Source of the DNA: Metarhizium brunneum
Taxonomy: Eukaryota > Ascomycota > Sordariomycetes > Hypocreales > Clavicipitaceae
Reading direction: 5' to 3'
Assembly (NCBI RefSeq): GCF_013426205.1
Contig: NC_089426.1
Location: 1,674,001 to 1,738,000, forward strand
DNA: 64,000 nt
The translations under genes and the position numbers were made by a program. The notes beneath the pieces were generated by a model that worked only from the letters and a program-made list of their open reading frames with translations, was not told where the DNA came from and searched no databases. Shown in pieces: positions 13,018-40,752 of this stretch (its first letter is position 1; every line of letters begins with the position of its first letter).

Positions 13018-15635
13018 AACCACGCCGTTGGATCTAAAACTCAGGATCCTGGTGCTAGAGAGCAATCGTACAGGAAGAATCAAGAATATCCACAAGCTCA
13101 CGACCCACACGTGTCGAAGGTGTTGAAGTTGCCAAAGGCGTCGTAGGCTGGGTGATTAGTGTCAAAAGAGGAGACGAGTGAGCGATAGACGAACGAAAGG
13201 ATGGGATTTCCTACTAGTCCGGATCGTCTGCTTTGTGGTTTCCTACGGGCTGGGTGCTGCCACAAAGAGTAAGGCTCCCACAAAGTGTCGATCCAAGGTT
13301 GTGATGGGTGGGGAAGGTTTGGCGGCAGCAAAGAAGCAATTTTGTGGCGGCGGAGTCTCAACTATAGTAGACATTTGTGCATCATTGCATTACAGCATCA
13401 TCATGCTTGTCCCCCCAAAAATGCGAGCGGTTGTGTCCTTGTCTTGGCCGTTTTGGATGTGTTCATGTGGAATGTCCAGGCCGTGTAGGTTGTTCTCTGG
13501 CTTTGCCATAAACTTGGAATCGTGGCCACCTGGCTTGATCTATGGCCCAGGAACGCGTCGTACGGGGTGTTGAGTTCTCTATTTATTATTGTGTGAGTGA
13601 GAGGGTTGGGCAAAGGCTGGCTTGGCTGCTCACCGGCTGGTGAAGGGCCAGGCGTCTCCATACCATGTCCTGGACTCCTGGGATTCCGGGCTGCAGCGCA
13701 GGAGCTGGTGGAAGTCAGTGGGAAGGTGTGGATGTCTGTGTGGCTGGTCAGTGTGTAACTCGAACAATTGACAGCAAATTGCACAGCAATGAGACGAGAA
13801 CAATACGGAGTACAGTATACGGAATACTCGGCAAAGAGCCATGGAGTGAGAATACACAATTGCCAGGCTTGCGCGGACGCAGTCAACGAGTAGGGCGTGA
13901 GCATCTGCTATGTATGCTGCATATGTGCTCTGTGCGGCATGGTGGTCGCTCTTTCCCAATTGCTTGAGTCAAATCCAAACCCGGTCAACGTCGTTGAGCC
14001 ACGAGGAAGGCGCATCAGGCCATCTGCCCGTCTTGCCGTCTGCTCATTGGCGACCATCCAACTTCCATGCAGCTTGATGAGAAACACCGATGGGCGACGG
14101 ACAATAGGCAATCGTCCAACGTTCCTTCCTCATGTCAGCTTGGTAAATTCGTTACATCCATTGGGTCGCCCAAACCTTTCCAATCTCATTTTTCCTTTCT
14201 CTCAAATGCAATTTGCAGTCCGTGCCAACCAACATGGCCCATGCTGCTATCCAACTGAGACCCCCTTTCTCTTTGTCTCTCTCTTTCTGAATCTCGGCCC
14301 TAGCTCCCTGCTCTGTCCTCGCCCACAATCTAGATTGAACACTGGGCGGACCAGGCGCAAAAGAGTGGGTGTTCTACACAACAGCCGCATCGCCCGCATC
14401 GCATGAAATGAAACCCCAAGTCCTGTTTTGACAGCATAAAGGTCGCTTCTGTGCAGCAGCCTATTGAGTTTAAGTTTCTTTTCCTTTGGTACTGCCTTGT
14501 CTCGCCAGTGTGACAGCTACACTCATTTCGGCCTTACAGATGACGAAGGTGAGATCTACTAAACAAAAAACACGGCATGTCTCAGAATGTGGCCAGATCT
14601 ACGGAGTACGGGGTACAGAACCAGCAGTATCCATGATCCTTGCTCGTACCTCTGACATTTCTGACTTTCGCTGCATACTCGGTGCTTTTACCGCGCATTC
14701 CTTGGGTCACTGCTGCTTATTTCGGAGTGCAAGACGATAAATGAATGATTTGGCGGGGACCCTATTACTATTCATTTCGCTGCTCAACCAGGCCCTGTCA
14801 CCCGCATAGCTACGCAACAGTTGTTCTTGTTGGACGGCCCACGAGAGTAGTATTTTCCAAGTCTTCATGCGAGGGGGCAGACAGCAATGAACCTGAATCA
14901 AATATTGAGGACAGCGTCCGTATTCCTTCCCGTTTGCCTCGCTTACAAATAGGCGATGCGCCGTGGGGGCTAATTTGTCTGGTAATATAGCCGTCACTTT
15001 CAGCCCAGCTGCAAGTCTAATACGGTACTCCATACTGCAGCTCGAACGCGGGAAATAGTGCCATCCCGTCGATACGTATCGAATGGCTATCGAGTCTCCG
15101 GGCCCCAGCCACAAAGAGTCATTTCCATTGGCAAGGGCTCTACTCCATATCCCGGCAGTCTGGTTACTTCACATACGTTGCACAAAGAAAAAACAGAGCC
15201 ATGGCATCGTATGCGCGGTATTGGACGAGGTGCGCGCGGGGTTGCGGATAGCCCTCCCGTACTCCGCATTACGGAGTAGCATTATCGCAAATCAGAATAT
15301 GAGATATCATCAGAGCTGCTGGGGTCCAGACCAGACCCAAGTGCTGACACCATTCATCAAGCGACACAAGCACAACACCTCAAGCTGAAAGTATTGGGCT
15401 CTCACAATTGCTCTCTACTTCTTAGCCCACGTGGCTACGAACAGACTCATTTCTCTGCGTACTGGAGCATGTTTCGTGCTTTTAGCAAGCCTGTTGCACG
15501 TTGTTGGCTCTGAGTTCAGCTTTCAGCTTCTCATCAACCACACCCCATCATGCATTCAGGAGGCAAAGTACCCGAGAGCCGACCCAGATTGTAAAAACTG
15601 ACGACATTATCGCCCCGTTCGTTGCCCGGACGGTC
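13018..15635. other. Intergenic DNA, divergent promoter region
   Basis: This 2.6-kb stretch separates the minus-strand Zn2Cys6 gene from the plus-strand HeLo gene. Copies of the TACGGAGTAC motif occur near 13806, 14601 and 15272. No coding region, tRNA or mobile element could be supported. Confidence 0.45.
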
Positions 15636-17639
15636 ATGGACCCAGTCTCTGTTGCTGGCTTGGCCCTCGGTGTGGCATCACTTGGTCTCCAGGTGTACAC
15701 TGGTTGTATCCAAGGTACGAGTCGCCTACAGGTCTCCACGAGATTTAGTACTCAAACAGTAATGAGACACTGATACACCTTGTCGTCGCCGTTTGAAGGC
15801 ATACAGCTGTTGGTTACTGCATTGGGGTACAATGACGAGTGTAAATACCTCAACTTGAGGCTTCGGATGGAACAGCAGCGTCTTTTTGCTTGGAGCGAAA
15901 CTTCGGGCTTGTTGGATCTAGAATCTGAAAATCATGATAAGATCCTCAACTCAAACATATTCAGTTTGCATCGCCAAACAGTGCTTGACATGCTGGTACA
16001 AATCCGATGCTTGTTTGACGAGTTCACTAGTCACCAGCGCAGACACAATAATCTAAAAACGGATCGAGATGACGAAAACTTGGTCGGTGCGCCAGATAAA
16101 GACGCGAAAGAGGCCAACTTTCCCATATCGGATAGGAAGCGAGACTTTATCAAAAAAGCGATGACGGCTTGGAAAGAAAAATCCCAAGAGGGGTATCAAA
16201 GGCTTCGATGGGTGTCATTCGATAAAGCCGCTTTTGAACTGGTATTGTCCAAATTCTCCGCTTTAAACGACAACATGACCAATATATTGGATCATTCACT
16301 GCAGGTAGAAATCCGACACACAGTGGAAGACACGAATAGGGGAGTTTTGCTTTTGCATCACAAGGTTGCAGATTTAAGTCACCTTGTGCTGGCGTTGAAA
16401 TCGCAGCTAGATGCGGGAGCTGCCTCACTCCCGACCGCTTCTCCCCTGTCAAAGTTGGAAAGGGAAGCAAGTCTCGATGCCTTGATGCAATTATCTAAAC
16501 TTGCCAAGTTCAAGGCACTTAACGAAACTCTTGATCCAAAGACTGGAAGGCCCTCTCAGGCAGACAAAGCGGCGGCTGAATTCCTTGAACTTGCAAACCC
16601 ATCTCAGCCAGGCAATATCCAGATTCCGCGCTATCTAATAGAGCTCGGTTCAGAGGTAGATGAATCGGAAGCTTCACGCTGTGAAGCGCTCATGAAAACA
16701 CCCGCAGGTAGGAAGAAGGTCTGGATAGAGTGGAAAGACTACGATACAACTGGGCTGCGCGAAGACTCCTTATCGAAGGAGGACATTATCGATCGAGTGA
16801 GAAAATTGGCATCTCTACTGAGTCACAGTCCGAAGCCCAAGGCTTTCAGAACACCACATTGTCTCGGGTTCTTCGATAAAGCTGACCCCGATATCCCTGC
16901 TGAGGATGTCGATATTCTTGATAGGCGGTTGGGTCTGGTATTTGAGCGGCCTTGCAATGATTCACTGCATCCCACACTTCCGCCAGTGTCCCTCCACAGC
17001 CTTCTTCAAGATGATCGTGTTCGAAAACCACGCGTAACAGAACGGGCCCGACTGGCAACGGCACTGAGTACTTGTGTCCTATACCTTCATGCAGTCGACT
17101 GGTTACACAAGGGCCTTCGGAGCCGTAATATTCTCTTCTTCCGTACTCGCACCGGGACCGTCGACTATGGTCAACCGTATCTCTCTGGGTTTGACTATTC
17201 ACGCCCGGGGGGCTCGGACGAGATGACAGACGTGCCTGGAGATGATGCAGAGCATGACTTGTATAGACACCCGGATACGCAGACAAACAGGAGGAAGGAG
17301 AGGCAGCGCTCCAAGAAATGCTTTGACATTTACAGTCTGGGAATTATCTTTGTCGAGTTGGCTCATTGGAAGACGGTTGACAAGGTCCTTAAGATCGACA
17401 TGCGAAGGGCTCGGGGCAAGCCAGAAATTTTGCGACAAATTCAAGACGAGTTGCTTGGTGATGAGCGAATGGCAGATGTTGGAGGTGAGATGGGCGAAAA
17501 GTTTGAGGATGCGGTTAGGACTTGTCTTGGTGGGGGGAACAGACTCGGACTTCACCAAGGGCGTGAAGATGCGGCCGAGAAACTATCGACAACATTTTAC
17601 GAGAATGTTGTCAAAAAACTTGGGCAGATTGCGGTGTAG
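15636..17639 (+). CDS. HeLo-domain pseudokinase (MLKL-like architecture), 2 exons, 639 aa
   Basis: Exons are 15636-15714 and 15799-17639; the 84-bp intron (GTACGA...TTTGAAG) joins in phase. The N-terminus, MDPVSVAGLALGVASLGLQV, and the following helices match the HeLo (HET-s prion-inhibition and propagation) domain, about residues 1-220. From about residue 300 a kinase-like fold is visible: a beta3-like WIEWK with K339, the helix VLYLHAVDWLHKGLRSRN, and LSGFDYSRP. The catalytic loop reads HKGLRSRN (about 463-470), so the HRD aspartate is missing. The DFG position reads SGF at about 489-491, so the metal-binding aspartate is also missing. It is therefore probably a pseudokinase. HeLo domains of HET-S and the four-helix bundle of MLKL are known to be related membrane-targeting domains. 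A role in regulated cell death or incompatibility is inferred. No NLR or amyloid-motif partner gene lies beside it. Confidence 0.85.
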
Positions 17640-18171
17640 GGAGTCGGGACGCATCCAAGGACTAGGGCGTGAATGATGCAGACTAGCTGGCAATTGGTTG
17701 TGATGCCGCTATTCGTTTCTCAACGGAATAGCCATGTTCATAATAATATGACGAGAATTCCTACAGGGCCTCGATGTGCGGCCCAACTCGGAAGAACCGG
17801 ATCAAAGCACCGCTGTCAGTTATCTGACTGTCTGTGCAGTGTGCAGGTGGATCTCAGAGCTTGGAACTCGGGAATTTGGGTCCAGAGCAGTCAGGTGAAT
17901 TAGGTGATGCTTTGGGATTGGTGCTACATGATATAATTTCAGTGCATAATCAACCGCATCCTGTTTCTTCTGCCCCGGCGTCATGCGAAGGGCAAGCAAC
18001 GTTCGCCTCTGTCCTTGGGCCAGACCTGGGTTGAGATCTGGCAGACATGATGCATCTGGCATTTGCACAGCCCCTCCCGAGTCCTCTCCTCTCGCCACAG
18101 CGACTCCCCAGTGCCGACTCCCGGAACCCCACACTCAGCTCGCATCTTGATATCGGAATCAAAGTCAAATT

Positions 18172-18478
18172 TTAGCAGCAGCATTCGCAGCACTCGAAGC
18201 AGCAGAGGCCGGCGCAAAGGCCGCAGCAGATGGCCTGTTTCTGGGTCAGCATTGGCCCATTCGCACTTCAAGTAAAGGCTCAAGCGCGATGTTTTTTTTT
18301 TCTAGGGGGAAGGGGATGCCGACAGGCATTGCACAAGGAAACGCCGCAGTCAGTCGCAAGTGGAAGCGGGCGTGGCTGGTCAAGGCGATGATGAAGTGCG
18401 TCACGGACGAGACAGATGGGATAAGCTTACCTCGCCTTCCTCGCCGCCGCCTCGGAGGCGCATGGAGTCAGCAGACAT
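18172..18478 (-). CDS. Tiny cysteine-rich protein (CYSTM-like tail), 2 exons, 38 aa
   Basis: Exons are 18478-18431 (16 codons) and 18240-18172 (22 codons plus stop). The 190-bp intron has donor GTAAGC, a TGCTGAC branch point and acceptor ACCCAG, and is phase 0. The product begins MSADSMRLRGGGEEGE and ends with the cysteine-packed KQAICCGLCAGLCCFECCEC followed by two more cysteines at the C-terminus. Ten of the last 18 residues are Cys. The pattern, a short polar head and a C-terminal hydrophobic Cys-rich segment, resembles eukaryotic CYSTM-type tail proteins, which associate with membranes. I recall similar tiny proteins in other ascomycetes but cannot check. It is easily missed because both exons are very short. 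Function is unknown. Confidence 0.7.
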
Positions 18479-21400
18479 GGGCTCAACAGGGCGCTGCAAA
18501 GTCGACTGTCAGCGGAGGGTTCGCAACAGATGCTGTGGTCACGGTGTAAATTGATAGCTATTCATGTGGCCAACGGGACGAGCCGACTTGGCAACAATGA
18601 ATGGCACGGGCAAAACAACAAGGCTCGCGGCGCAGAACGTACGGGCTGCTCAGTGCTAGTTCGGGACTCGGGAACGACCGCGGGAGCAGGCTCCTGAGTC
18701 ATCTGTTGTTGCGTAGCAGGCATAGTTGGCTTGATATGAGGGCTTATCGAGCGATGCTATAATATTGAGCGTCTGGGAAGCGGAGGGGCAGCGATGACGA
18801 CGTGACGTATGAATGTTGGAGACTCGAGCACACAAGCAGCGCGCGGGAGTGGGATGACGGGCCTTTTAAAACCAACATCAGAAAGCTGGATGAACGGGTG
18901 GTCGGATTGGCCAGGGGCCCTTTCCCTTCTACGTAATTCGGACTATTCGCGTCTGGTTTGGGAAGACGGAAAGGATGGCGGCAAGCTTCGACTCGCGGCG
19001 TCGCGCCTCCCGTTGGGGACGACACAGCCTGCTTGGTACCACTACGTATCAGACTTGCCAGACTCGGTTGGCGATCGGTACTCGTACGGGGGCTTATCAG
19101 CTCTGCTCTGTACGATGCCAATTGCAGCCGGGACTACATGGATGACGGGAGGTGAGGATGGGTTCTGGCCATGGCGGTGCTGTGGCGTCGGCACAAGACT
19201 GCCGAGCTCGTACAGCTCCAAGAGTGATGGGACGGAATATTTATGGAGAAGACGCATCATTGTGTTGGTGCACACACTCGCAACAATCGGCCTTTTGTCC
19301 CTTGACCGTTTCAAGAGGGAGCAGGGTGGTGCGGGAGCTCAAGCTGGGCCGACGATTCGCCCAGTGGCATCGTGGGGTGAAGCCACGTTTGGGACGCGAT
19401 GGTTGTCATTTTTTGTGCGGATGGACAATGATGGTTCCGCATGGTTCTTGATATATCTCGTCGCAACTGCCAACGACCCTGTTTCAAGTTTCGAAAACAC
19501 ACACACACACGCAACGAGCCATCAGACTTATTGTTCCTATCCCTGTGTCCACGACAGCCATTTGCTTTTTTGATGCCGAGTGTCGCATATTGTTATTGTT
19601 CCCCCACAGATTGGAGGTTTTGACGTCCAGGGCTTTCGCGCCCCCTGCCATCGTCCCATGGGCCTTTCGGAACATCGGCACCGGCCAAGCCTCCCCCTTT
19701 TCCTAATCCATCATGGCGCCGGTGACGACAGTCTGGCGGTCCCGGCCCACGGACGCTGACCCTGGGCGTGGGCTTGGGTTTGGCGGGCAAAAGGCTCGGA
19801 GCGCAGGAGGCGTGCACGACACGTCCCTGGCCGATCCAGGAGCAACAAAATCCTGGTTGTGCGCGTCCATGTCCAATCATGACTGGTTACTCCGTACTCC
19901 GTACAAGGCCCGGACTTGCGGGTGCTGCGTTGTCATTGTGGCTATGAGTCGTGCTGACTACGTTGTGCGCCGGCCAGACGGTCGTGTCGGCCGGTCTGTG
20001 GGCATGGGACTCGGCCGGTTTCCGAGGGCGTTTATGCGTTTTGCTCTTGATGACGGAGGAAGGGTGCAAGCCTCTGATTAGCCGCCCTGGATGGGGATTG
20101 TTTTGAGCTCGCTGACAGAACGTTGCGATTGGGGGCTTGGTGCTTCTACTACTGCGCAACGATGGGTGCGGCAAATCTGTTGTAGGAGTTGGGAGATGTC
20201 GGGTTTTGGCGGCTGTGAGTTGTACGAATGAGGTGAGTGGCCAAGTTGAGGTATGAGCGTGAGCTATGGTCTTGGTATTGGTTTCATTCATTACCCGAAG
20301 TCTTTTCTTATACGTCTGACCGTTGGGAGCCATTTACTGATTCTTGAACTAGACATATCTTTTTTTATAGTAACGCGAAACTCTACGCCTTCTGCCACCC
20401 ATCGACATGCGTCCCACTCATTCGGGTAGACTATCCGGTAGGGGAAATCACCCGTCAGTCATCAGCTCTGCGTCTCAAATTGCTGGCTTTTTTCACCAAT
20501 GGCACGAAGTCCTATTGATCCTACGGAGCGTCTTGGGGAAATCTGGGGCCCCAGAGTCCATGTTGAAAGATTCTATTGACTGGGCCTCACACAGCCTTGG
20601 GCGCAAGGTGAGACCTCCTCTACTTGTCGGGCATACCTCGACGTCCGTCAAAGATAGCCAGGGCGCGGGCTAGATTTCGGTGCCTGCTGGCCTCGAATTC
20701 ATGCCCTACAGTGAACGGCAGTCCCGGCCTGGCCAACTTCAAAACATGGCGTAGGTGTTCTTCCGGCCAAACTGTGTATAGAAATACTGTTGCTAGTTGT
20801 GGCACTGGGTTGTTACGCCTTCGAATTGACTGCATGCCGACAACAAAGCTTGAATATACCAGGCAAGTTGATGAAAGATGGGTGCCGAAAGACATGGGCG
20901 ACACGATCGGCCTTTATCAAGATGAATACATATACGGGTGAACATGTCACAAATCCCCGGAAAGCGATACTTATTGGGCAGTGACTGGAGTCACCATTAC
21001 CGTCAACTGTATGCGTTGGAGCCATGTCGAAAACACCAAGCCAAGATTCAAGAACCAGATAGCTAAGCCAAATGAGTGTCGGTTTTATTTCGTTGCAAAA
21101 ACCAAAGAGTCTCAAAAACAAAACATGAATAATAAAGAAAGACGTGTGACAAAGTCCCAAGTTGCTGTCGGCTCCAAACCGTCCCTGTATTATATGCCCC
21201 ATCCCGCTCACATTCTCCTGGTCCTTGCGAGCGCTCGGTGCAAAGTTGCCACAAGGCTCATAGATACACATTGTAAACTTCAGGCGTGCTGAAGAAATCG
21301 ATGGTGAATTCTGGTGGAGGATGCGGTGATATTTCGGACCGAAGCGGGCGGTTTTTGCAATCTTTTTTTACTTCTTTTTGGCCAGACGGGTTTTTGTCAC

Positions 21401-21855
21401 AGATACACAGATACGTGTCCTGCCACTCTGATAAATCTCCCCTGGAAGCAAAGTCGATGGAACCGGAGCTTCGTATGTAAACTCAATGTCGTCATGGTGT
21501 GAGCAGTCTCGCCCCCAACCAACCAACCAGCCAACACAATATAGCGCGGACAAAAAAGTATAAACGACAACATGTTAGAAAGAAATGCATGATTCAAAAT
21601 GTGCACAACGACCAACACGGAGGTATCTCCTTTTGTGCTGGGTGGCAAGTGTTTCGTCGTGCTCGGGAAGGGAGTCGACGATGCGAAAGATGGGCTCTGA
21701 GCAGCGAGCCAGGCCCTCCGTATGTTCCCCGGTATGAGCAATGAGCAAGTCATGATGCGAAGGCTACATCTAGACAGATTCATTGTCTCTTTCGACATGG
21801 CGTCGAAAATGAAGGGACTTGAGAGATGCGAGCATGATCGTATGTGTCACCCTAT
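18479..21855. other. Intergenic DNA, no supported gene
   Basis: About 3.4 kb without a gene I can defend. A double copy of the ACTCCGTAC motif occurs at about 19886-19905. Coding-like but unassignable minus-strand sequence at about 20620-20960 (ending RRGMPDK) could be part of an unrecognised gene or a relic; no splice model was found. Confidence 0.35.
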
Positions 21856-22863
21856 TCACTGGCGTCGATTCGCAAATTTTCTTAGATACGCAGGGTTTGA
21901 TATCAAAACTGCAAGTCTTGGTCGTGATGGATCGACATTGGGTCGCAATTTGCGAATCTCATCAAATAGCATTCCTACCACATCGGGCTCACCTTGAAGA
22001 TCGATGGAATGTTCTGGTGTCTGGATGGGATTAGTACCACTATGCTGCGGTAAGAAGGCACAGCAACTCGACATTGCTACGTAGCATTAGTCAATACTTA
22101 CAAAGCTCGTTTGCGGGGCGGTATATGTAGTCTCGGAGTCCTTCTGCTCCTGCTTCTGCTCCAGTGTACGTTTTAAAGTCCTAATCTGGCGGGGAACTCC
22201 ATGTGCGAACTGATAGAAAATCTGGACGGGATTAGTATCCCCGTGCTGCGGTGGGAAAAGCAAGATTCGTACTTGAACTTGGTACTTACATTGCTCAGCA
22301 GCTCATCGCTGTCATTCCTAAGCCGGTCAATGAACCCTTGAAAAAGGTATTTCCTAATAGCACGGAGTTCTGGGTCCTCCCAGTCCTCCAGTTCTCCTTC
22401 CTCCAGTTCTTCGCCCTCTAGTGCTCCGTCCGCTCTCCTTTTTAGACCTTTAAGCAGGTGAATCTAGACGAGATTAGTACCACGATGTTGCGGTCGAAAG
22501 CACGATTATGACTGAAATTAGTACTTACAGAGTCAAGTAACGCCCTGTTGATACATTGATACACTTCGGTTCCGTGCATGACATGCACCCGCTCTGCGAT
22601 GCGGACTACCTGTAGACGCCATTAGTCATAGTGGCACTATCGACTTGACGTATTATTTGTAGTTTGGGGTTGGCACTTACGGGGAGAGGGTCGTCCGTCT
22701 CAATGTTCGCCAGCAGGCCGCGAAAGTATCCGTCCAAGAAGGACAATGCCGAATGATGAGGGTCATCATATGCTTTCAAAAAAAGGACACCACCTAAGTT
22801 TTTGGCGACCAGATTCTTCAAGGCTTCCGCAAAAGTTGCATGATGCTCATTATTGGGTTTCAT
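21856..22863 (-). CDS. Unknown protein, 5 exons with look-alike introns, 240 aa
   Basis: No single open frame shows this gene. Exons are 22863-22681, 22609-22529, 22463-22290, 22221-22102 and 22020-21856 (61, 27, 58, 40 and 54 codons plus stop). All four junctions are phase 0, all donors are GTAAG, and acceptors end CTACAG, TCTAG, TCCAG and TCCAG. The product starts MKPNNEHHATFAEALKNLV. It has a strongly acidic stretch around residues 100-125 (GEELEEGELEDWEDPE) and a charged, probably coiled, segment QKQEQKDSE near residue 175. There is no signal peptide or membrane span and I recognise no family. The start is the first ATG of the leading exon; the same frame extends upstream without another ATG. 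The upstream flank is CT-rich like a fungal promoter. Introns 2, 3 and 4 resemble one another (see findings). Confidence 0.7.
22021..22101 (-). repeat. Intron 4 of the unknown gene: introner-like copy
   Basis: 81 bp, GTAAGTATTG to CATCCAG. Its last 31 bases (ACCGCAGCATAGTGGTAC followed by TAATCCCATCCAG) match the ends of introns 2 and 3 of the same gene at most positions. The shared block contains the branch-point word ACTAATC. Confidence 0.55.
22222..22289 (-). repeat. Intron 3 of the unknown gene: introner-like copy
   Basis: 68 bp, GTAAGTACCAAGTTCA to CGTCCAG. The end reads ACCGCAGCACGGGGATAC followed by TAATCCCGTCCAG. It resembles intron 2 at both ends and intron 4 at the 3' end. Confidence 0.55.
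22464..22528 (-). repeat. Intron 2 of the unknown gene: introner-like copy
   Basis: 65 bp, GTAAGTACTAATTTCA to CGTCTAG. The end reads ACCGCAACATCGTGGTAC followed by TAATCTCGTCTAG. It aligns with intron 3 over nearly its whole length. Confidence 0.55.
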
Positions 22864-23817
22864 CCTGGCACTAGATGGCCACGCCTTTGTTTGTTGGTGG
22901 TAGACGCCAAGGTGAGAAAGAGCCAGCTGAGTTGCTGCGTCAGTCCGGACCAAAAATATCCGTCGAGAGTGGACGATAGAGAGCAGGAAGACCCAGCGCA
23001 AATGCAGGCTGTAAGCTGTAGGCTGTGTGAGGTTGTGTCGAGGGAAACTCGAATCCTAGACCAAGGTTTATTGAATTGTTGAAAGCAAAGGTGAAGATGA
23101 AGGAGATGAAGAATGAGCCGAGGTCTGGCTCCCCGTCGAGGTTTATATACCTGAATCCCCAGTAATATTCATAGCCTTAGGGCAGAGTGAGGAGCTGCAT
23201 CAAATCATGAATAATGACATCTCCTGTCCCTGTTCAGATGCTGTTTATCAACTATCCGCCGTCGCAGCCACAGCCTCACCACGCAACCGGTTTGAACAAA
23301 GGGCCACCTCCAAAACATCAGAAGCGACACAAACGAGTCCTGGGCCTAGTCGATTTTCACCGGACTCTGAGCATAATCAAATGGTCAGCAGACCTCGTCC
23401 TTTGGTGCTTCATCATACATCCCGTCTGCATCAGATGGAAACTGGGTCCTGCACAGGAACAAAGCGCCGACGGAAGGGGGGATCACAAGCTCGCTTGCAA
23501 TGAAAGCAGCCCCGTCCTCTCCATCAGTTCTTACCAAGATCAACACGGGTTGCGCCCGTGTTCAACTTTTTCTCATTCACCACACAAGCTCGCGGCCATG
23601 TCAGAGGACCACAGCTCGCCATGCATGGCGCCGCGCCGTAAACATACGACTCCCCTATGAACAGCCAGCCATGTTCAGAAACCGGACAAAGAACGACAGG
23701 AACACAGTAGCCACCAACGAGGGCAAGGTGGCAAGCAAGTCTTCTTGAACCACGGTAGCCCGCCGGGACCTCTTCCCAGGATATGATACGGCCTTGTGAG
23801 CGCCTCCTGATAACGCA

Positions 23818-24345
23818 TCAGTTCCTGGTTCCGGCGATGCCGTGAAGGAAGAACAGCCGGCCGTCGTTGATAAATCGAACATTAGGTTCTCCAGGCTGGC
23901 TCTGCCTCCCCGCCGCCTGGCCAACAACGTATATGGCCTGCGCAGGCGTCGGGGAGAGGCTCTCGAAAAAGTCCACTAGACAACCTGCGAGAAGCTGGGA
24001 CGTATACGTCGCTGATGACCACTTCCAGTCCGCCCTCCGTCGGTCTGGGGACGGCATCTGTGTCGAGGCGCTCAATCAGAGCGTGTACTCGGCACTCGCT
24101 GTCGTGACGTGGCTTTTCTGTGTCCCTTTGTAGGGCACACTCTGGTCCGGCAGCGAAGCACGCCTGGTAGAGATGGTCAATGGAGCGCTCAATGTCTTCG
24201 ATATTTTGGCTGCAGCCCCGTACCGTTGTCAGACTGCAAACATCGGATCCGTAAAGCTGTAAGGAGCAGGCATACGCTGGCGATCCCGGTTCGCCCAGAA
24301 CTTCAGAGCCGAATTGCCGCAGTCACGCAGTCCCATCAACAGTGA
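23818..24345 (-). pseudogene. Possible relic of an alpha/beta-hydrolase (TAP-like C-terminal part)
   Basis: Reading the minus strand from about 24260, one frame gives coding-like sequence: NIEDIERSIDHLYQACFAAG and then PECALQRD. This resembles the stretch CxxAGPxxCAL found after the catalytic region of secreted fungal TAP-type alpha/beta-hydrolases. From about 24000 the likely continuation, LVDFFESLSPTPAQAIYVVG, is in a different frame, ending at the stop at 23818-23820. The nucleophile and N-terminal half are not found; the adjacent regulator gene ends at 24484. This is therefore at best a 5'-truncated, frame-shifted remnant. The family call rests on pattern memory and could be wrong. Confidence 0.3.
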
Positions 24346-24483
24346 TTGTTATATAAGTGTAGGCTCGCATGACGACATGTGTAAGCAGATAAAACATAAT
24401 CATTAGTCGCTGCATGATGCTGCCTGTTCTCACCACCGTACACATTCTTCATGGAACTCGTACTTGTCTCTCCAATTGCCCAG

Positions 24484-26708
24484 CTATTGCCCCAGCCTCG
24501 CCCACAGCTCAATCAACGAGCCAAGCTGGCCCTCCACTTCCTCCAAAAGCGGCCCCGAATTCCTCGCAAGAGCTTCCTTGACATTGTCTGGCTGCGGAAG
24601 CACAAACGACACGGGCAAGTCTGGCTCTATGGCTTCCACACCCCAGCCGTGGAGGTACCGCCGCGCAGACTCGGGAATGGTCTTCCCCATGGCCCATGCA
24701 AACGCTTGTATGCCCTGCAGCAGGTACCCCAAGACCTTCATGCGGTTAATGCCCTGCTGGGCAATCATACAGGCTGTTGAGAAGGCCGGATGAGTGGCCG
24801 AATCATCCAGGAGCGGGATGAGGGCGTACATGCAAAGGTGTATGTGGCGATATGCAAGACCACCCAGGGATTGCCATTTGTTCATGTAGACCCCTATGAG
24901 CTCCACGTCGGCGATGCAGCGTTTGCGTAATATGTCTCTGACAGTTGTCCCAGGGAGATCGTAGAGGTTGTGAAACGGTGTGTCGAGGGGCACGTCGCGA
25001 AGAATGGTGAAGATGATTTCCGTTTCGTGCATTCTTGAGAGCTTTGAGTTAGGGCTTAAGGAAATACAAGTGCGTGTTTTGGGATTTATTATACCTTTTC
25101 ATACATGTTTCCGGTGTCATGTTGCTCCAACAGTGAAACCTGGGCGGTAGTTGAGCTACATAAGCCAACAACCTACAGTAGAAGCTCTTGCGGATACGCA
25201 AGTCGCTATCACTTCCGGTGATGGCGCCTTCGCAGACGTACTGCATCAGTTCATTCCAGAGCTCAGTTAAATTACAATTTATGGTATTGATTCCCGGAAC
25301 CAAGGGGACAGCACTGGTGGCTTCGTCATACAAACGGCCCAAAACATCCATGTTGGCAGTACCAAATTCGTCGGGCGGTTTAGGCACCTTTGGCGCGGGT
25401 AAAATGGACGGATGGGAATAGTAAAAGGCAATTCGACTGGTAGTACTTAGCTCATGGTTTTTTTTTTTCGCGAAATTTACAACTCACCTTTCCATAATGT
25501 ACAAACCCCAAAGCACGCGGCTAATGATACACTTCTCCTTTTGGCTACCAGGTCTGCTCTCAAGGGCCTGAAACTTCTCCTCCAACGACAGCCTGCTGAG
25601 CAGAGCATACGCCGTGTAAAGATATATTCGGGATATCTTGTCTCTACCTTTGATGGCCATCGTGAGGTACATAAGGACGAGGGCGACGATGTTGGGGATC
25701 GACGCACAACCTTGTTCCCGTTCATATAGCCCCTTGGCCTCTTCAAAAAAGCGATCTGAGAGGTTTTGTTTCGCAATGACTCCAAATTGCTTTGCTCTCT
25801 CAGAAAAGTTCTGTTAAATTAGTTCAATGGTCTAGTATCAGAATCAGGGGAACTAACACTTTCAACCGCACAGATGGCATTGACTAGGAACGGTGTGCAA
25901 TATCTAGAACCAATTACATGTCCAGACTTCATATCCTCGATAAAGACGTCTTTTTCGAGAACAGGGAGAAGATAGGTACCATTGAAATGAAACAGATTTG
26001 TGATGAGCTCAGACACAAGCCCGTCGCCCGCAACAATCGTCCACGGTCGAGCTGGAACCTTGATAATGCTCCCATCCAGAGCCAGGCGATCCAGCCGTTC
26101 CAGCTGATAATTGCCGTAAGTCTCGGACGGTGAAGGGTTCGGGAACAGCACCTCAGCTTGTCTCACAGCTTCAAAGAGAATGAAGGGTTCGCCAGACTCT
26201 CTGATGTGACGAAACAATTCCAACGCCTCATCCCAGGGCTTAGTACATAACAGCTGAAATAGCTCCCTGTACTGGTCATTCTCACTCATCAAGTCGTCTC
26301 GCTTCTGCTTGAGCACGCTAGTCAATGCCTTACCCCTTTCAAGCTCATAAGTACACGACTCGCCTCTACTGTGGCAGCGTTTACAGGTTGGTCTAGAGCC
26401 ATTGCACTACCTCTCTAAGCATCCACTCGTATCTCAGAAACAGTATATGGGAAGTTTTGCCAACTCACCTTGGCCTTTCGTCGCCTGCAATTCTGGCATG
26501 CGACACTGATCATCGCCCGCTTGGGTCTGATGAAGGCACGGGGCGGAGTTGACCAGTTACTTTGGCCATTGGACGGCGCGGACGGCGCATACACCGATAG
26601 CTTTGGGCAGATGGGTAATTGTCCTTCCCCTGACGGTTGCTTTGAATTCATCATGTCAAGGTTTTGTGGCTCAGAAATGTTGAAGGTTGTAAAGAGGCTT
26701 CGTAGCAT
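24484..26708 (-). CDS. Zn2Cys6 transcription factor, 5 exons, 667 aa
   Basis: Exons are 26708-26469, 26406-25858, 25810-25488, 25436-25095 and 25033-24484. Introns are 62, 47, 51 and 61 bp and all junctions restore frame (total 668 codons with stop). The first intron interrupts the zinc cluster after RRRKAK. Joined, it reads C71-x2-C74-x6-C81-x6-C88-x2-C91-x6-C98, a canonical binuclear cluster, followed by a short basic/coiled linker (LTSVLKQKRDDLMSENDQYR). The remainder is the fungal-specific transcription factor domain, with the motif LWGLYIME then a run leading to PKPPDEFG, typical of the central helical region. The start at 26708 is the longest ATG; 26654 (MMNSKQ) is also possible. Expected role: nuclear regulator of unknown targets. 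The nearest neighbours are decayed genes on both sides, so context gives no target. Confidence 0.87.
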
Positions 26709-27169
26709 TCGGAGCTCAACTTATACGGGGCATGGAGTCGAGTGGTTAAGAAATAAAGTCGGTGCCAGAAAATTTGCGGTCTGGCGCTTTCGACGTTTCC
26801 ATTGCAGGTACCAATGGAAAAGCTGTCCTAATACGGAGTCAAAATTCTGGTGAATAAAGAATGACAAGTCGACGGCATCAACGGCTGCAACTGCATGGCG
26901 GTATCGAATCACGTCGAGGCGGAAAAGACGTCCGGTCCTGCGAGAAGACCCCCTGGCTGCTGATTTCCAGGTTTGTGAATCGTCGCTTTAGATCGATAAA
27001 TGCGATGTGTCACATCGGCTTAACGTAACGGCCAGCCCTGTTGAGCAGCCAGCTTACCATGGGGGGAGCCAAAGCCACTTGGAGAAGCCTCTAATCGCCT
27101 TACATATGTATGTATAGCCCTTGCTATACTACGACGTTAATAGACACACAGCCATCTCAGCACTTGATA
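26709..27169. other. Intergenic DNA upstream of the regulator
   Basis: This is the probable promoter of the minus-strand Zn2Cys6 gene and the 3' flank of the decayed gene. Nothing else is recognised. Confidence 0.4.
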
Positions 27170-28604
27170 TTACGACATGTCATCAAGGCGCATCCTTGGA
27201 GGAAACTCAGCCGCAAGCTTCAAAATGCCAAAAGAAACCCGCCCATTCTCAAGGCTTTTATGCATCCAATCACAATGGTTCTCGTATCTACCCACCAGCC
27301 TCATCAAGAATTTGCCCATGAGGAGACGGGGCGGGGATTGAAGGAAGCCGAAAAGTGCCATGGGAGACAGGATTCCTAGATCCTTATCATGACCCGGCAT
27401 TGTGACCAACTGCCATGTGCATCCCATGTCCGGGTTGCGGCCCGTATGGCTGGTGAGGCTGTTAGACACGTCTTGCAGAATCGGCATGACTGGCACGGAG
27501 TACTGCCGCTGGATGGGCTGCTAAGGCATTGGTGGCAGTGGTGGTTGCATGTAGTCGCCCTGTTCTGGGCCTTGCGGTTCGACGTTACGTGAAACCACTC
27601 CGAGTCTCTTACTACCCTTTCTCCCTATTCTGAGAGGCGTGGAAGATGGTCAGGATGTCGATATCGATGACGGCAATGCCCTCGACCGTGTCGCCGGAGA
27701 TGGCACCAATAATGGCTTTGCTGCCATCAATTCCGTTTCTGCGGCTCCTGATGCCATTATTATTTATTAGCATTCCTGGTGCTCCCTCCGCCACAACTTC
27801 CTGTTGATGCTGCCTAAGTTTTGTCATCGATTTGTGCCAGGAAAATGTTGCCAGGCGTTGAAATAAAGTTGTCGTCTGTGCAAATGGCGAATTGATGGCG
27901 TAAGTCCTGGTGGTAGTACGGCGAGACCATTTTGGAACGCGGCGGTACTCGGACAAGTGAGATCAAAGTATATATTGCCCATGTCATTCCTACTGCAGTC
28001 ACTGCCAAGGGGACTACAGTGTCATTGACCATAACAGAAATGAGTCGTTCGTTCACGGTGTCCTAGAGGGTGAGTTGTGATCAGTCAATACCCGTATTTT
28101 CAACCGCCATTCTACGAAGGGCAGGAATGATGCAAGGGTCAAGCTGGCACAACTCACTCGAGCACAAACCGTATCGGGTAGGCAAGTCTATCTCCTATTC
28201 GGGCGAACATTGAGGACCTGTCGAATGCCATTACCACCCACGCATCAAAACTTCTGCCAATTTTGTTATAGTTGCCGAGCTGTTGTGAAAACGGAAAGCG
28301 AACTGGCCCCAGACGAAGTTGACGTCCTCGTAGGTGACGATTCGCTCAACAAGGTTGTTCACAACATTGTTTCAGGGGCAGCCGAGATAGAGATGCAAGG
28401 AAATCCAGCGGTGGGTGGAACTTGGAGAGTATGTTGTTGTCTACCTTAGAGCAGCAGAGCTCGACGTCAAAAAAGAGCCACGGATTGCTGTTCAAGTTCA
28501 GACCGGTAGAGAAGAATAGGATGAGAGAAGTTGTGACGGAGGCCGAGAGCCTGAGAAAATTTCATCGTTGTGATTCCAGTCCTACTCCATCCTCTGCGCC
28601 ACAT
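27170..28604 (-). pseudogene. Decayed gene for an unknown, possibly membrane-associated protein
   Basis: The minus strand carries consecutive coding-like blocks that change frame several times. In order: a block from 28604 containing MKFSQALGLRHNFSHPILLY; a block with NNLVERIVTYEDVNFVWGQF; a block ending ARIGDRLAYPIRFVLE at about 28160; after a probable 5' splice site (GTGAGT), a block with AVGMTWAIYTLISLVRV (one hydrophobic segment) ending at 27814; a block with GMLINNNGIRSRRNG ending at 27612; and a last block with an in-frame TAG just before QPIQRQYSVPVMP, ending at 27170. Frame changes near 28370 and 28235 fall inside otherwise smooth sequence, where no GT-AG intron fits. This points to pseudogenisation or to assembly errors rather than splicing. 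No family recognised. Confidence 0.4.
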
Positions 28605-29923
28605 TGTCGATGGTTGATATCCAACTATTGAGAGCTCTAATCAGAGGCAACTATAACGACAACTGCAGCTGGTGAATAAACGTGAAGCGCCATATCAGGT
28701 CCACCATGGCTCCAATAGACCTCTATGCATTTTACCGAGATTTGAAAACGGAGGCTGAAGTATCTATCCTCCAGGTGGTTGATGATGACGGACGATTGAG
28801 TTATCATTTCATGAGCTGGAACGTAATGTGCACTTGGTATCAGGGAAACATTGACGCGGCCTGCTGTGTAAGGAGCATAGTCAGGCCCCTAGTTGATACG
28901 AATTGCAGGAAAATGGTCGTGGGAGGCTTTTCAAAGCTAAAAAAGAGCACGAATGTCTCTCAGGGGGCAAGATGATTGGCGTAGTTGTTCATGAGACTCA
29001 CGAGGTTGCGACAGATGAATGGGGAGAGGCGAGTCACGTGTGAAGCTTTCGACAAACGTGAGCTGCCGTGATCACTTGACAGCTCGGAAGTTGTGAGGCA
29101 AGTGCCATCGATGCCTTGGCTGCATTCATTTTCATCAACTGTTACCACAGGCTGCGGCAGAATATATTTGCCGACCAAGAAGTCGATATACACTAATATA
29201 CATACTGTAGTGTCAATAGTAGAATGTAGAGCGCGACGTATAGATAAGTACGTAAGTAGTTAGGTCTTGGGAGGTACCTAACCTGGTCAAATTCCTGGGC
29301 ACTTTTTCCCCCAGTGTAGATTTTCGCAGCAAATACCTGAGGCACTTGCATGGACAGGCAATTAAGCCCAAGTTGGACGACACTGTGCGTCGCCTCAGTC
29401 CATCGACAGATTTCAACTCTTCCAAAAGCTGGCATCTCCAGATTTCAGGTCCCGCTCTTCAACAAGGCCGGGGAGGTCTAGCCACGGGTTTGGTCTATCT
29501 CAAGGCCCCGAGTTGCCGGCCCACTGGTGCCTGAGCAAATTCGCCCACTGGTCCACAAAGTTTCCCATACGCTTATCGAACTGTGGCTCCCCAAGACCAA
29601 TGAGGCTGAGGCGTCTTGTGCCAATCATTCATGCGTGACACCCAACTCTGTGCGTCGACGTCAACACCATCAATCCAGTCTCAAGAGACTGTCCCGTGTT
29701 GAAAAACGACACCAGCTTTTTTCCATCATCCCCTATTTGCCAATGTCTTGATCGTCTGCTTGTGCGGCTCGACGCTACTCTCCTGAAACGACAGGGAACT
29801 CATCACCAGCCCGGCCGTCCGCGTCATCCTACTGTTGGTTTGGCTGAGTTGCCTCGCTTCCCTCCAGTGCAGGCAATCTCGAATTTGCTTGCGAGACCAA
29901 ACACCGGCTCGAATCTCGACATA
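28605..29923. other. Region with scattered coding-like fragments, then kinase promoter
   Basis: Minus-strand pieces at about 28960-29193 (QGIDGTCLTTSELSSDHGSS) and 29193-29435 look coding and may be upstream exons or relics of the decayed gene at 27170-28604. A plus-strand frame at 28706-28975 (MAPIDLYAFYRDLKTEAEVS) is also open. None could be linked into a gene. The last few hundred bases are the probable leader of the kinase gene. Confidence 0.3.
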
Positions 29924-32900
29924 ATGGCCTCCTACGGCTATCAAACCGCACCTCACCAGGGCTCGAGACATGCACAGCACGGAGGATACGCGCCGCAGGC
30001 TGCGCCGTCGCACGGCGGTGCGCCCGCTGGCACATTCTCCCCTGGCACCAAGATCCAGGTTGGCAGTCATCGAGTCGTTATTCAGAAATACCTATCAGAA
30101 GGAGGATTTGCACATGTCTACTTGGTCAAACTCTCCAAACCCATCGACGGTACCGATCTGGCGGTTCTTAAGCGTGTTGCTGTTCCCGACAAAGAAACGC
30201 TGCGGGGTATGCGTACCGAAGTTGAGACCATGAAACGACTTAAAGGACACCGACCGATCGTAACATATATCGATTCCCACGCTTCAGAGCTGAGAGGTGG
30301 CGGATATGAGGTTTTCCTCCTCATGGAGTATTGTGATGGTGGCGGCTTGATTGACTTTATGAACACACGCTTGCAGCATCGATTGACGGAACCCGAGATA
30401 TTGCACATTTTTTCCGATATCGCTGAGGGCGTTGCTTGTATGCATTATCTCAAACCTGCCCTCCTACATCGAGACTTGAAAGTTGAAAATGTCCTCATTG
30501 TGAACCGCGGGTCGTCGAAGCGGTTTAAAGTATGCGACTTCGGATCCTCCGCCCCTCCACGAGCTGCACCGACAACCGTAGTCGAGTGTCGACTTATGGA
30601 CGAGGACCTTCAGAAACACACAACACTGCAATATCGAGCGCCCGAAATGGTTGATGTATATAGAAAGCAACCGCTCAACGAAAAGTCGGATATTTGGGCA
30701 TTGGGTGTGTTGCTGTATAAATTATGCTATTACACAACCCCTTTTGAAGATCAGGGACAGTTGGCTATATTGAACGCCAGTTTCAAGTATCCTAGTCATC
30801 CTGTCTTCTCGGATAGACTGAAAAAGCTTATTGGTATGGAGTTTGGTCTTGATTTCCAGCAAGATTTTGTTACGCCAAAAATACTAACAAGCCTCAAGGG
30901 TCTATGTTGAAAGAGAACATGCAGTCTCGGCCGAACATTTACCAAGTCCTAAAGGAAGCATGTGCCATGCAGGGCAGACAAGTTCCCATACACGATGTAA
31001 GTCGCTCCCTTAATGATGTTACTGTTCATACCTAACGTGGCCTCAAGATATATTCGGGCCAAGCGAAACGAGAGTCGAGACCTGCAAGTCAACCATCACC
31101 CACCAAGTCTCAACAAGGCCATCAAGGAGCCGTCGTGGGTGCAGTATACTCGCCACCCGAGCAAGAAGAGCACAATGTCCCTGATATCGTGCCCATGCGA
31201 CGGGGCCGTCCTACTGTTTCACCCGGGCCACAAAAGCAAGACCCGTCGCGAAAAGTCACTGTAGGTGATCCATTTGCCGCCCTCGATTCAACGAGTAGTC
31301 AAAAGGCTCTCGGGGCCGACGAGCTATCTGCGCGTTTCCCGACTTTGGACCAGTTCTCTCTTCTTCACGACAAGGGAGCTAAATTTGACTTCGACTCATC
31401 GGCAATTTCACCACAGTCTCAACACGTTGAGGCCGACCAACACGTGGCAGAGCGTCTGGCCGACGAAGCATTTGCCTCGCTACAACAGAGTCCAGAGAAA
31501 CCGGCTCCCTCCCCACGACCTCACTCTCTCACTCCCCCTTCGCAGCAGCCTGAACACCTTTCCACTCCTCCTGTTGACCGATCTCCGTTGAACACGTCAT
31601 CAGCGCCCACAACAACGGAGCAGAGCCAACCCAGTCGGGCCTCCTCGATTATCAGCAGTAACCCCGAGCTGAAGGCCATTTCGGCTCAGACTAACGCAAA
31701 ATATGTCTCGACTGGAACGATGACGTCTGAGTTTTCTTCCAGAGTCTCAACGCCTCAATTTGAGAAACATTCAGAGAAGAAGCTCCCTGAACGTACCCCG
31801 TCCCGCGCAGACCAGGATTCGCTGCCTAATCACGCTCGCCCTCAATACCTCAGACGACCATCTCTATCGTCACGGCCGTCTTTGGAGGATCATCGAATTC
31901 AGGCCCAGTCGACGGATTCTACGTTGAGCTCATCAACACATGTCAGTCGGCCACGCCCCGCCAGCACCAGTTTTGAGTCCAGCACTCTGGATTTCCTGCG
32001 GGAAAGGGAATTGGCTGCCAAGCCTTCTAGGATGACAGTGCAGTCATCAATGCAAAATCCACAGCGGCGGCCGGCAGCTGCACCTCAGACAATCAGGGTA
32101 GAGGGCAGAAAGCAAACAGAAGAGGACCTGTTGCTAGACGTGACGAACTCCCCAGTGACAACTCAAGATGAACAAACGGATATCAATCGGAGATCGACTG
32201 CCTCAACAGCTTCTGGTCTTAAGAAATTAGCAGGCAAATATGGTGACGCTTTCAACCGGTTTGAAGGCGCTTCACCTCAGGAATCTGTAGGTATAATTCA
32301 GTCTGAGCTGCCTGAGCTACCCGAGTTGCCACAAAAGTCGACATCTCACCATGATGCAAAAGTTCCACCGAAGCAGGAACCAGCTGTTGGTCCCAGTGCC
32401 AATGCCCTGATTGATATTGAGGAGGACAGCATGACGCCAGAAATGAGGCGTGAGCTCGAACGTCAAAGGCTTGAAGAAGAAGAAAAACGAGTTGCTGCTG
32501 CTCAAGCTGAATATAAGAACCGGGTTGGCTCATCTGGGAAACCGGTTCCTGGCCCCAAGATCGTGGGGGCTTCACAACGCAAAGCCAGCACGATTCAAAG
32601 CCGCGTGCAGAGCTTGCTCAGCGAGGAGCAGAAACCATCTCCTGTTCAAAGGACTGCCCACGGTTATGGCAAGTACACCGATGAGCAGTCGGCGGCGCCT
32701 TCCGGTCAGAAACCAACGCCAAGCATCGTTCGCAGGTCAATGGCTCCCAGACCAATAAATGCGACCCCTTCCAATGACTCCGGGTCCATCACGGTTTCTA
32801 CATCCCATTCAATGCCAGCACCATCCCAGCCAAGATCTACGGGGCAAAAGCCACCTGCGCCGAAGAAAAAGCCCACTCATCTAAATAGCTTCCCAACAGG

Positions 32901-39200: not shown

Positions 39201-40752
39201 GTAGACAAGGGTACAACGACGAACCTTTTCTCGCAAGATATGGGCATGCTTGATAACCAACTCGTATTTGCTATTTCCAATACTTTACTATCAGGATTCA
39301 CAGTCATTGGGCAGCTAGTTGTCGTCGCTGTTGCAACACCGTACATTGCCATCGGATACCCCTTTTTCTTTGGAGTCCTGTACTTGCTCCAGAACTACTA
39401 TCTCAAAACGTCGAGACAACTTCGATTGCTGGACCTCGAGGCGAGAAGTCCTTTGTAGTGAGTCGTTGCTTGTTTTGGCTAGTATTTTCACTTTAAGAGG
39501 CTAACAGTCCATAAGTTCTAGGTTCCAGGACGTTGTCGCAGGTTTGATTTCCATCCGAGCATTTCAGTGGATGAATCAATACCAGAAAGCATTTGACCTG
39601 TTCTTGAACCAGTCTTTACAGCCGGATTATCTGCTCGATCTTGCCCAACAGTGGCTGACACTGAATCTGAACCTGATTGTTGGCATCATCGCCGTTGTAG
39701 TCACTTGCTTTGCCACACAAATTGTGGCATCATCTCATGCCGGACTTGTTGGCGCTAGTTTGGTGTCGCTCATGACGCTCAGCGAATTAGCATGCGCAAC
39801 CGTGCGATCATGGGTTCAGTTGGAGACCTCTCTTGGTGCAGTGAAGCGCCTGCAGGATTTCGACGATAATCCTACTCGAGAGGCTGACCAAGGTAGGGAC
39901 CCTCCAGTGGATTGGCCAACGTCAGGACAAATTACCATTGATGGCGTTTCGGCCGCTTATGGCAGCAAGACATCTGAGAACGCTTTGGTACTTCGTGACA
40001 TTCACCTCAGCGTCAGCGGTGGCGAGAAGGTTGCGATTATTGGCAGGACAGGAAGGTAGATATTTGCTTGAGCCACAGCTTCGTAACAAGAGTTCCTGGG
40101 ATACTAATACCAACTTCCCTTTAGCGGAAAATCATCGCTTCTCCTCCTTCTTATGCGGCTGCTCCATACTACTCCTGACACCTCGGACAAGATGACGGTC
40201 GACGGGATTCAACTACAGCATTTGAGCCCTCAGGCCCTGCGGCAGAGGATCATCGCTGTTCCACAGGAACTGATGTTTCTGCCTGGCACGGAAACCTTCA
40301 GACAGCTCCTTGATCCTGATGGAAACCTAAGCGACGAGCAGTGTAGGACCGCTATTGTCGAGGTTGGCCTAAACGATCTTGTCGAGGACTTGGGTGGCTT
40401 AGACGCTCTGATGTCTGAAGACAAATTAAGCCACGGACAGAAACAGCTCCTAAGTCTTGCTGTAGCTGTGGCAAGAAAGCTGCGCAGAGATCAAGCCGAC
40501 ATGTCAAGAGACACGGATACAGAAAAGGGCAGCAGTAGAGGCATCTTGCTGCTTGACGAGGTGACAGCTAACGTGAATTTCGAAACAGAGGACAAGATGC
40601 TGGAAGTTATCTTTCGCGTCTTTGGCGACTACACTGTGCTAAATATCACGCACCGACTCAGGTCTCTGCATCAATTTGACGCCGTGTACTCAATGTCGGG
40701 GGGCAAGATCAATGCCATCAAGGATGCTGAGAGGCCATTCATGTATACTTGA
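36263..40752 (+). CDS. ABCC (MRP-type) multidrug ABC transporter, 4 exons, 1430 aa
   Basis: Exons are 36263-36469, 36540-39457, 39516-40055 and 40125-40752. The third exon's acceptor is the AAG before TTCTAGG, which restores SPLYSRFQDVVAG. The N-terminus (DNSIGPAVVGCRGDFDFT) is the TMD0 start typical of fungal MRPs. NBD1: Walker A GPVASGKSTL (about 615), signature LSGGQKQRVALARAL (about 711), Walker B YVLDDTLSGLD; the D after the Walker B aspartate is normal for NBD1 of this subfamily. NBD2: GRTGSGKSSLL assembled across the last intron, VPQE, an atypical signature LSHGQ (about 1323), Walker B ILLLDEVTANVN (about 1361) and ITHRL (about 1394). The full order TMD0-TMD1-NBD1-TMD2-NBD2 is present. 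These pumps export conjugates, drugs or own metabolites at the plasma or vacuolar membrane. The flanking UstYa-like relic hints at a former peptide-metabolite locus; this is inference. Confidence 0.92.

What the first reader, a model, noticed from the sequence alone, without database searches (positions are those of the whole stretch)
22021..22680. Introns 2-4 (and perhaps 1) of one small gene look like copies of each other
Seen directly: introns at 22464-22528, 22222-22289 and 22021-22101 share a 31-base 3' block (ACCGCARCAY... then TAATCYCRTCYAG). Introns 2 and 3 also share their 5' halves (GTAAGTAC-AA-TTCA). All are phase 0 and carry the same ACTAATC branch word. Normal fungal introns of one gene do not resemble one another outside splice signals. 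Established: introner-like elements, introns that multiply as units, are known in some ascomycetes and algae. Inference: this gene has received several introns from one spreading template, recently enough for similarity to remain.
Basis: partly seen in the sequence, partly recalled or inferred. Interest (0 to 1): 0.8.

Follow-up and report, generated by a model that had tools for sequence, protein, structure and literature searches.

The report
Introns copied within one fungal gene
Three introns of one small fungal gene carry the same sequence block, and searches of the whole genome found no other copy, so one intron has likely been copied inside its own gene rather than spreading through the genome as an introner would.

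Summary
Introns 2, 3 and 4 of a predicted 240-aa minus-strand gene share 24-26 of their last 31 bases; the next pair among 2,207 pairs of local candidate introns reaches 19. Introns 2 and 3 are alike end to end. Intron 4 shares only its 3' block, and intron 1 is not demonstrably related. The likeness stops at the splice sites: flanking exons show none.

The introner reading does not hold as stated. Six whole-genome pattern searches matched only this gene. There are no target-site duplications or terminal inverted repeats and no unusual folding.

Best explanation: one intron was likely copied within its own gene, probably through RNA (reverse splicing, reverse transcription, recombination with the home locus); intron 4 probably lost its original 5' half afterwards. 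This resembles the near-identical intron pairs within single genes of Oikopleura (PMC3879977, passages): a new member of a known kind. Splicing is predicted, not observed. No orthologue could be reached (five homologue searches failed), so neither the gain nor its direction is dated.

The parts
22681..22863 (-). Exon 1 (183 nt, start codon at 22861-22863)
   Evidence: open frame after splicing; codon score of the whole CDS +0.078 in frame against -0.064 and -0.059 in the other two frames
22610..22680 (-). Intron 1 (71 nt, phase 0, branch ACTAATG); not demonstrably related to introns 2-4
22529..22609 (-). Exon 2 (81 nt, multiple of 3)
   Evidence: codon score of this exon alone is slightly negative
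22464..22528 (-). Intron 2 (65 nt, phase 0): end-to-end similar to intron 3
22464..22494 (-). Shared 31-base 3' block in intron 2 (branch ACTAATC to acceptor)
22290..22463 (-). Exon 3 (174 nt, multiple of 3); no similarity to the other exons beyond chance
22222..22289 (-). Intron 3 (68 nt, phase 0): end-to-end similar to intron 2
22222..22252 (-). Shared 31-base 3' block in intron 3
22102..22221 (-). Exon 4 (120 nt, multiple of 3)
   Evidence: its own codon score does not separate frame 0 from frame 2
22021..22101 (-). Intron 4 (81 nt, phase 0): shares only its last 31-36 bases with introns 2 and 3; the first 29 bases match nowhere else in the genome
22021..22051 (-). Shared 31-base 3' block in intron 4
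21856..22020 (-). Exon 5 and stop codon (stop 21856-21858)
   Evidence: weak coding signal when scored alone

Best explanation
Introns 2, 3 and 4 of this predicted gene share one sequence (2 and 3 from end to end, 4 over its last 31-36 bases), and they likely descend from a single intron that was copied inside its own gene, probably through an RNA intermediate. Shown: the similarity, its stop at the splice sites, the absence of exon similarity, and the absence of further copies within the reach of the searches. Inferred: an excised intron was inserted by the spliceosome (reverse splicing) at another place of its own transcript; the product was reverse transcribed and recombined with the home locus, giving a ready-made intron bounded by its splice sites. 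Also inferred: intron 4 was an older copy, or a copy whose 5' half was later replaced when its donor shifted. Untested: which copy is the source, and whether the introns are spliced in vivo.
For: Similarity far above other introns of the region and above shuffles. Sharp borders: 24-26 of 31 identical inside the 3' end, but 5-8 of 30 just downstream and 8-13 of 30 just upstream; none of the 10 exon pairs aligns convincingly (lowest DNA value 47 of 1,000 shuffles, lowest protein value 127 of 1,000). Splice-signal-bounded units with no in-register target duplication longer than 2 bases and no terminal inverted repeats at introns 2-4, unlike DNA-transposon introners. Confined to one gene: 6 whole-genome pattern searches matched only these places and a protein search found no second copy of the gene. 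[quoted passage not shown] the model of an intron reverse-splicing into its own mRNA (PMC3443670, section 6).
Against: Intron 4's 5' half is not related to that of introns 2 and 3, so it is not a plain full-length copy. All copies are phase 0, which exon-intron duplication would give automatically and random insertion would not. A weak, post hoc period of about 225 bases, with its double at about 450, remains in the locus when introns 2-4 are masked (27 of 1,488 random stretches of the region do as well). No orthologue was reached, so gain is not shown. Reverse splicing at a new site has not been demonstrated in vivo (PMC3443670, section 6). Copies diverged 20% or more from the consensus would mostly have been missed (33% detected at 20%).
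Confidence: 0.5

Rival explanations
1. Tandem duplication of exon-plus-intron units inside the gene: the introns stay alike while the exons, under diversifying selection, have changed beyond recognition.
For: All introns are phase 0 and exons 2-4 are multiples of 3 (81, 174, 120 nt), as exon duplication would give; copies are spaced 201 and 242 bases apart. With introns 2-4 masked, the locus keeps weak self-similarity at lags of about 225 and 450 (1 of 500 shuffles and 6 of 1,488 regional stretches reach both bands; 27 of 1,488 for any lag with its double; chosen after seeing the data). Fast exon change with conserved introns is a known false positive in introner surveys, e.g. Plasmodium var genes (PMC9860276, methods section).
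Against: No DNA or protein similarity between any two of the five exons beyond chance (10 pairs); identity drops to background within a few bases of both splice sites; the weak periodic signal comes mostly from 22701-23000 (exon 1 and upstream), not from the exons between introns 2 and 4; exons would have to change several times faster than introns that differ by only 17-23%.
Confidence: 0.18
2. A genome-wide introner-like element family, now so decayed that only the copies in this gene are still recognisable.
For: Splice-site-bounded copies; fungal ILEs are said to degenerate fast into ordinary introns, two ILEs in one gene are on record, and that paper takes introns of 81-87 bp as possible degenerated ILEs against 50-55 bp for regular ones (PMC4457414, introduction and one results section); introns 2-4 are 65, 68 and 81 nt.
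Against: No copy found elsewhere in 37.8 Mb with patterns that would catch most copies of the same age; no hairpin excess (z -0.2 to -1.0 for introns 2-4); lengths are ordinary for local candidates (median 74, n 68). It would be odd for the surviving three all to sit in one gene.
Confidence: 0.13
3. The 3' block is a functional splicing module (branch site plus acceptor context) kept alike by selection in three introns so that they are spliced together or regulated together; the 5' halves drift freely.
For: Intron 4 keeps 26 of 31 bases of the block although its 5' half has no detectable relation to the others; introns 2-4 are the only 3 of 68 strict candidates with branch word ACTAATC; any donor can join any downstream acceptor in frame.
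Against: Introns 2 and 3 are also alike outside the block, which asks for common descent anyway; no Rfam match at gathering score in window 15000-30000; of the three predicted folds only intron 2's forms a hairpin inside the block, introns 3 and 4 fold otherwise.
Confidence: 0.11
4. DNA-level copying: repair synthesis, template switching or gene conversion moved intron DNA between sites of the gene.
For: Short distances (201-242 bases); intron 4 looks like a partial copy.
Against: Such events have no reason to end at splice sites, yet the similarity does so on both sides for introns 2 and 3; conversion needs flanking homology, which is absent.
Confidence: 0.08

Closest known systems
Nearly identical intron pairs within single genes of Oikopleura dioica (Denoeud et al. 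2010; not held, seen here only as described in PMC3879977, passages)
   Same: Few copies, all members of a set within one gene, attributed to reverse splicing.
   Different: Here three members and about 77-84% identity in the 3' block rather than near identity; one member alike only in its 3' block; a fungus.
Fungal introner-like elements (Zymoseptoria, Fulvia, Dothistroma; PMC4457414, abstract, introduction and one results section read)
   Same: Introns alike over their whole length, at splice sites, with ordinary splicing signals.
   Different: ILEs occur in tens to hundreds of copies in unrelated genes (PMC4457414; PMC3879977, passages); here three in one gene, none found elsewhere, no excess of structure.
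Hypoxylaceae sister stwintrons and cropped introns (PMC8469720, abstract and passages read)
   Same: Seamless integration, no flanking duplications, low-frequency propagation.
   Different: Those have 45-55 base terminal inverted repeats and lie in many genes; neither is true here.
Intron gain by tandem genomic duplication (PMC4974935, search listing only; PMC3629103, passages)
   Same: Local origin within one gene.
   Different: In the two fission-yeast cases of PMC3629103 the similarity extends into neighbouring exons; here it stops at the splice sites.

Membership tests
Fungal introner-like elements / introners | Many copies in unrelated genes of one genome | tested here: not met
   Whole-genome patterns match only this gene; copies diverged about 20% or more could be missed
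Fungal introner-like elements / introners | Similarity spans the intron up to both splice sites and not the exons | tested here: met
   Met for introns 2 and 3; for intron 4 only at its 3' end
Fungal introner-like elements / introners | Stable secondary structure / internal symmetry | tested here: not met
   Fold z-scores -0.96, -0.19, -0.66 for introns 2-4 (intron 1: -1.90); no terminal inverted repeats
Fungal introner-like elements / introners | Longer than regular introns of the genome | tested here: inconclusive
   65, 68 and 81 nt against a median of 74 in 68 predicted local candidates, but above the 50-55 bp that PMC4457414 gives for regular fungal introns
Introners moved by DNA transposition | Target-site duplications, terminal inverted repeats | tested here: not met
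   Longest in-register run 1-2 bases at introns 2-4; 3-5 of 20 bases match in the TIR comparison
Intragenic intron transposition (Oikopleura type) | Similar introns within one gene, absent elsewhere | tested here: met
   within the sensitivity given
Intragenic intron transposition (Oikopleura type) | New intron absent from orthologues at that site | not testable with these tools
   No relatives of this genome held; five homologue searches ended in database errors
Intragenic intron transposition (Oikopleura type) | Intron spliced in vivo | not testable with these tools
   No RNA data; only open frame and codon score
Exon-plus-intron tandem duplication | Similarity extends into neighbouring exons | tested here: not met
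   a weak post hoc period of about 225 bases outside introns 2-4 remains

The most novel reading that the evidence does not exclude
A gene-private introner: a spliceosomal intron that has multiplied at least twice into its own transcript's gene and nowhere else, leaving a three-member intron family in one fungal gene. This would show that reverse splicing acts in cis, on the transcript from which the intron has just been cut, and that such local bursts can make ordinary-looking introns without any mobile element.
Probability: 0.35. Interest if true: 0.68.

Novelty: new member of a known kind. Interest (0 to 1): 0.47.

Why it matters
Where new introns come from is a long-standing question, and most introns have no visible source. 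A set of introns in one gene that are visibly copies of one another, with clean borders and no copies found elsewhere, is one of the few traces that copying within a gene would leave. A fungus that can be cultured and transformed would make the reverse-splicing idea directly testable. If exon duplication turns out to be right instead, the locus is a warning for introner surveys.

Tried and rejected
Intron 1 as a fourth copy: rejected (z 1.1-1.4; 3' block 260-415 of 10,000 shuffles). A possible link between the 5' halves of introns 1 and 4 (21 of 10,000 shuffles) did not survive comparison with real candidates: 4 and 9 of 156 others score as high. A hidden tandem array: Tandem Repeats Finder lists none of period near 225 in 21000-24000. 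Self-comparison shows weak peaks at lags 224-230 and 449-453 that persist with introns 2-4 masked; the overall maximum is ordinary (165 of 500 shuffles reach it), but both bands together are reached by 1 of 500 shuffles and by 6 of 1,488 regional stretches, 27 of 1,488 for any lag with its double. It was chosen after seeing the data and lies mostly upstream of the introns in question, so I leave it as an unexplained weak signal; I raised the exon-duplication rival by one point for it. Introns as copies of neighbouring exons (AGGT duplication): of 40 intron-exon comparisons on both strands none fell to 9 or fewer of 300 shuffles. Inverted repeats or docking sites as in mutually exclusive exons: none of 14 bases or more in 21500-23300. 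Known RNA family: none at gathering score in window 15000-30000. Known protein family for the gene: no Pfam match at E up to 1, no convincing PDB match (best E 0.11), no confirmed relative in viral contigs (13 pattern matches, none confirmed). A plain DNA search with one intron as query is too blunt: it did not find even the sister introns, so only the pattern searches count. The loosest setting lost intron 3 from the candidate list (probably through its filter for a stop in the unspliced frame, not checked). The profile of introns 2-4 found only these three, on which it was built, in the 264 kb held.

Full report
Setting. The window is C5:1674001-1738000 of a 37.77-Mb genome in 7 contigs. It looks like a filamentous ascomycete: short introns, a HeLo/DUF7580 protein, and Fungal_trans and CAF1 domains among the 8 ORFs scanned. 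The gene is predicted on the minus strand, 22863 to 21856: five exons and 240 aa once four phase-0 introns of 71, 65, 68 and 81 nt are removed. Codon use supports the frame as a whole: +0.078 in frame against -0.064 and -0.059, at about the upper quartile of real ORF pieces of this region. Scored alone, exon 2 is slightly negative, exon 5 is weak, and exon 4 does not separate frame 0 from frame 2. The protein has no Pfam match at E up to 1, no convincing PDB match, and no second copy found in the genome.

The observation. The 31-base 3' block is present three times and is not expected by chance. Against 67 candidate introns predicted in 264 kb around the locus, the three pairs are the top three of 2,207 for last-31-base identity (26, 26, 24; next 19) and for global alignment score (33.5, 25, 24.5; next 16.5). 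Eighteen other pairs of nearby introns reach at most 13 of 31. A looser list (180 candidates, 16,065 pairs, 111 other nearby pairs) again puts the three on top, next 19, other nearby pairs at most 16. The loosest list (219 candidates, 23,812 pairs, 171 other nearby pairs at most 17) lost intron 3; there i2-i4 leads with 26 and the next pair has 21. With splice signals held fixed, 0 of 5,000 shuffles match any of the three scores.

What is shared by which. Split into halves, the 3' block (without its last three bases) is shared by all three, 0 of 10,000 shuffles each. The 5' half without the donor is shared by introns 2 and 3 only: 10 of 10,000 shuffles, and 0 of 156 other candidates as similar to either. 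Intron 4's 5' half resembles neither (about 3,700 of 10,000 shuffles as good), and its first 29 bases match nowhere else in the genome with up to 3 mismatches. Intron 1 is not related beyond its signals. The full i2-i3 alignment has 53 identities, 11 mismatches and 5 gapped positions.

Borders. Just outside the introns the similarity is gone: of 30 exon bases, 8-13 match upstream and 5-8 downstream. None of the 10 exon pairs aligns well; the lowest DNA value, exons 3-4, is 47 of 1,000 shuffles and the lowest protein value, exons 1-3, is 127 of 1,000. No intron resembles one of the exons in 40 comparisons. The unit that was copied is therefore the intron, not an exon-intron block, unless the exons have since evolved far faster than the introns. 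One result points the other way: with introns 2-4 masked, the locus keeps weak self-similarity at lags of about 225 and 450. Both bands together are reached by 1 of 500 shuffles and 6 of 1,488 stretches of the region; any lag with its double, by 27 of 1,488. The test was chosen after seeing the data and the signal lies mostly in 22701-23000, so it does not show exon duplication between introns 2 and 4, but it is not explained.

Copies elsewhere. Patterns for the 3' block, the 5' half of introns 2/3 and the 5' end of intron 4 were run over the whole genome, with up to 2-3 mismatches except (none). They matched only these places; the backwards control gave 0, and 1. One search used intron 3's spacing and so found intron 3 only; one search found two of the three. 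The tool warns that its counts are lower bounds for repeats. A simulation with substitutions only puts the power of the pattern at 91% for 8% divergence from the consensus, 83% at 10%, 58% at 15% and 33% at 20%; the three known copies lie at 7-13%. A family of the same age scattered through the genome should mostly have been seen; older copies could be missed. Single-intron DNA searches do not count, because they missed even the sister introns.

Mechanism. There is no in-register duplication beyond 2 bases at introns 2-4 and no terminal inverted repeat, and folding is ordinary (z -0.96, -0.19, -0.66 for introns 2-4). This speaks against DNA-transposon introners and the structured fungal type. 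Length does not decide: 65-81 nt is ordinary among 68 local candidates (median 74), yet above the 50-55 bp that PMC4457414 gives for regular fungal introns. Units that begin and end at splice sites and stay in one gene fit intron transposition into the gene's own mRNA. A review calls this the most commonly purported route, with reverse splicing shown only back into the original position in a mutant (PMC3443670, section 6 read). [quoted passage not shown] the original paper is not held). [quoted passage not shown] The survey of 3,325 genomes kept only families of at least four introns (PMC9860276, abstract and one methods section read), so a set of three like this would fall below its threshold.

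What is weak. Splicing is predicted. Orthologues were out of reach: relatives are not held and five homologue searches failed. Intron 4 is at best a partial or remodelled copy. All introns are phase 0 and exons 2-4 are multiples of three, which is what exon duplication would give. The paper searches were seen mostly as listings, so I do not claim that no such fungal case is in print.

Noticed in passing
22102-22609 (exons 2-4): Exons 2, 3 and 4 are 81, 174 and 120 nt and all introns are phase 0, so skipping any of them would keep the frame; with similar intron ends, alternative isoforms are conceivable.
   Followed up: no
21600-23100: Weak self-similarity of the locus at lags of about 225 and 450 bases with introns 2-4 masked, strongest in 22701-23000; unexplained and chosen after seeing the data.
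   Followed up: partly
22464-22528: Intron 2 has an internal direct repeat, GTACTAATTTC just after the donor and GTACTAATCTC at the branch site (read from the sequence).
   Followed up: no
22385-22428: A Glu-rich stretch of exon 3 is encoded by a short imperfect tandem repeat of period 15, 2.9 copies.
   Followed up: no
15780-17639 (+): ORF of 619 aa with HeLo and DUF7580 domains, the prion-inhibition type of fungal protein.
   Followed up: partly
1078-1902 (-), 4060-5826 (+), 6441-7760 (-), 11626-12465 (-): O-methyltransferase, sugar transporter, ABC-2 transporter and fungal transcription factor domains close together; might be part of a metabolic cluster.
   Followed up: no
36564-40752 (+): Likely one long ABC transporter gene listed as three ORFs; only the first was scanned (ABC_tran and ABC_membrane).
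   Followed up: no
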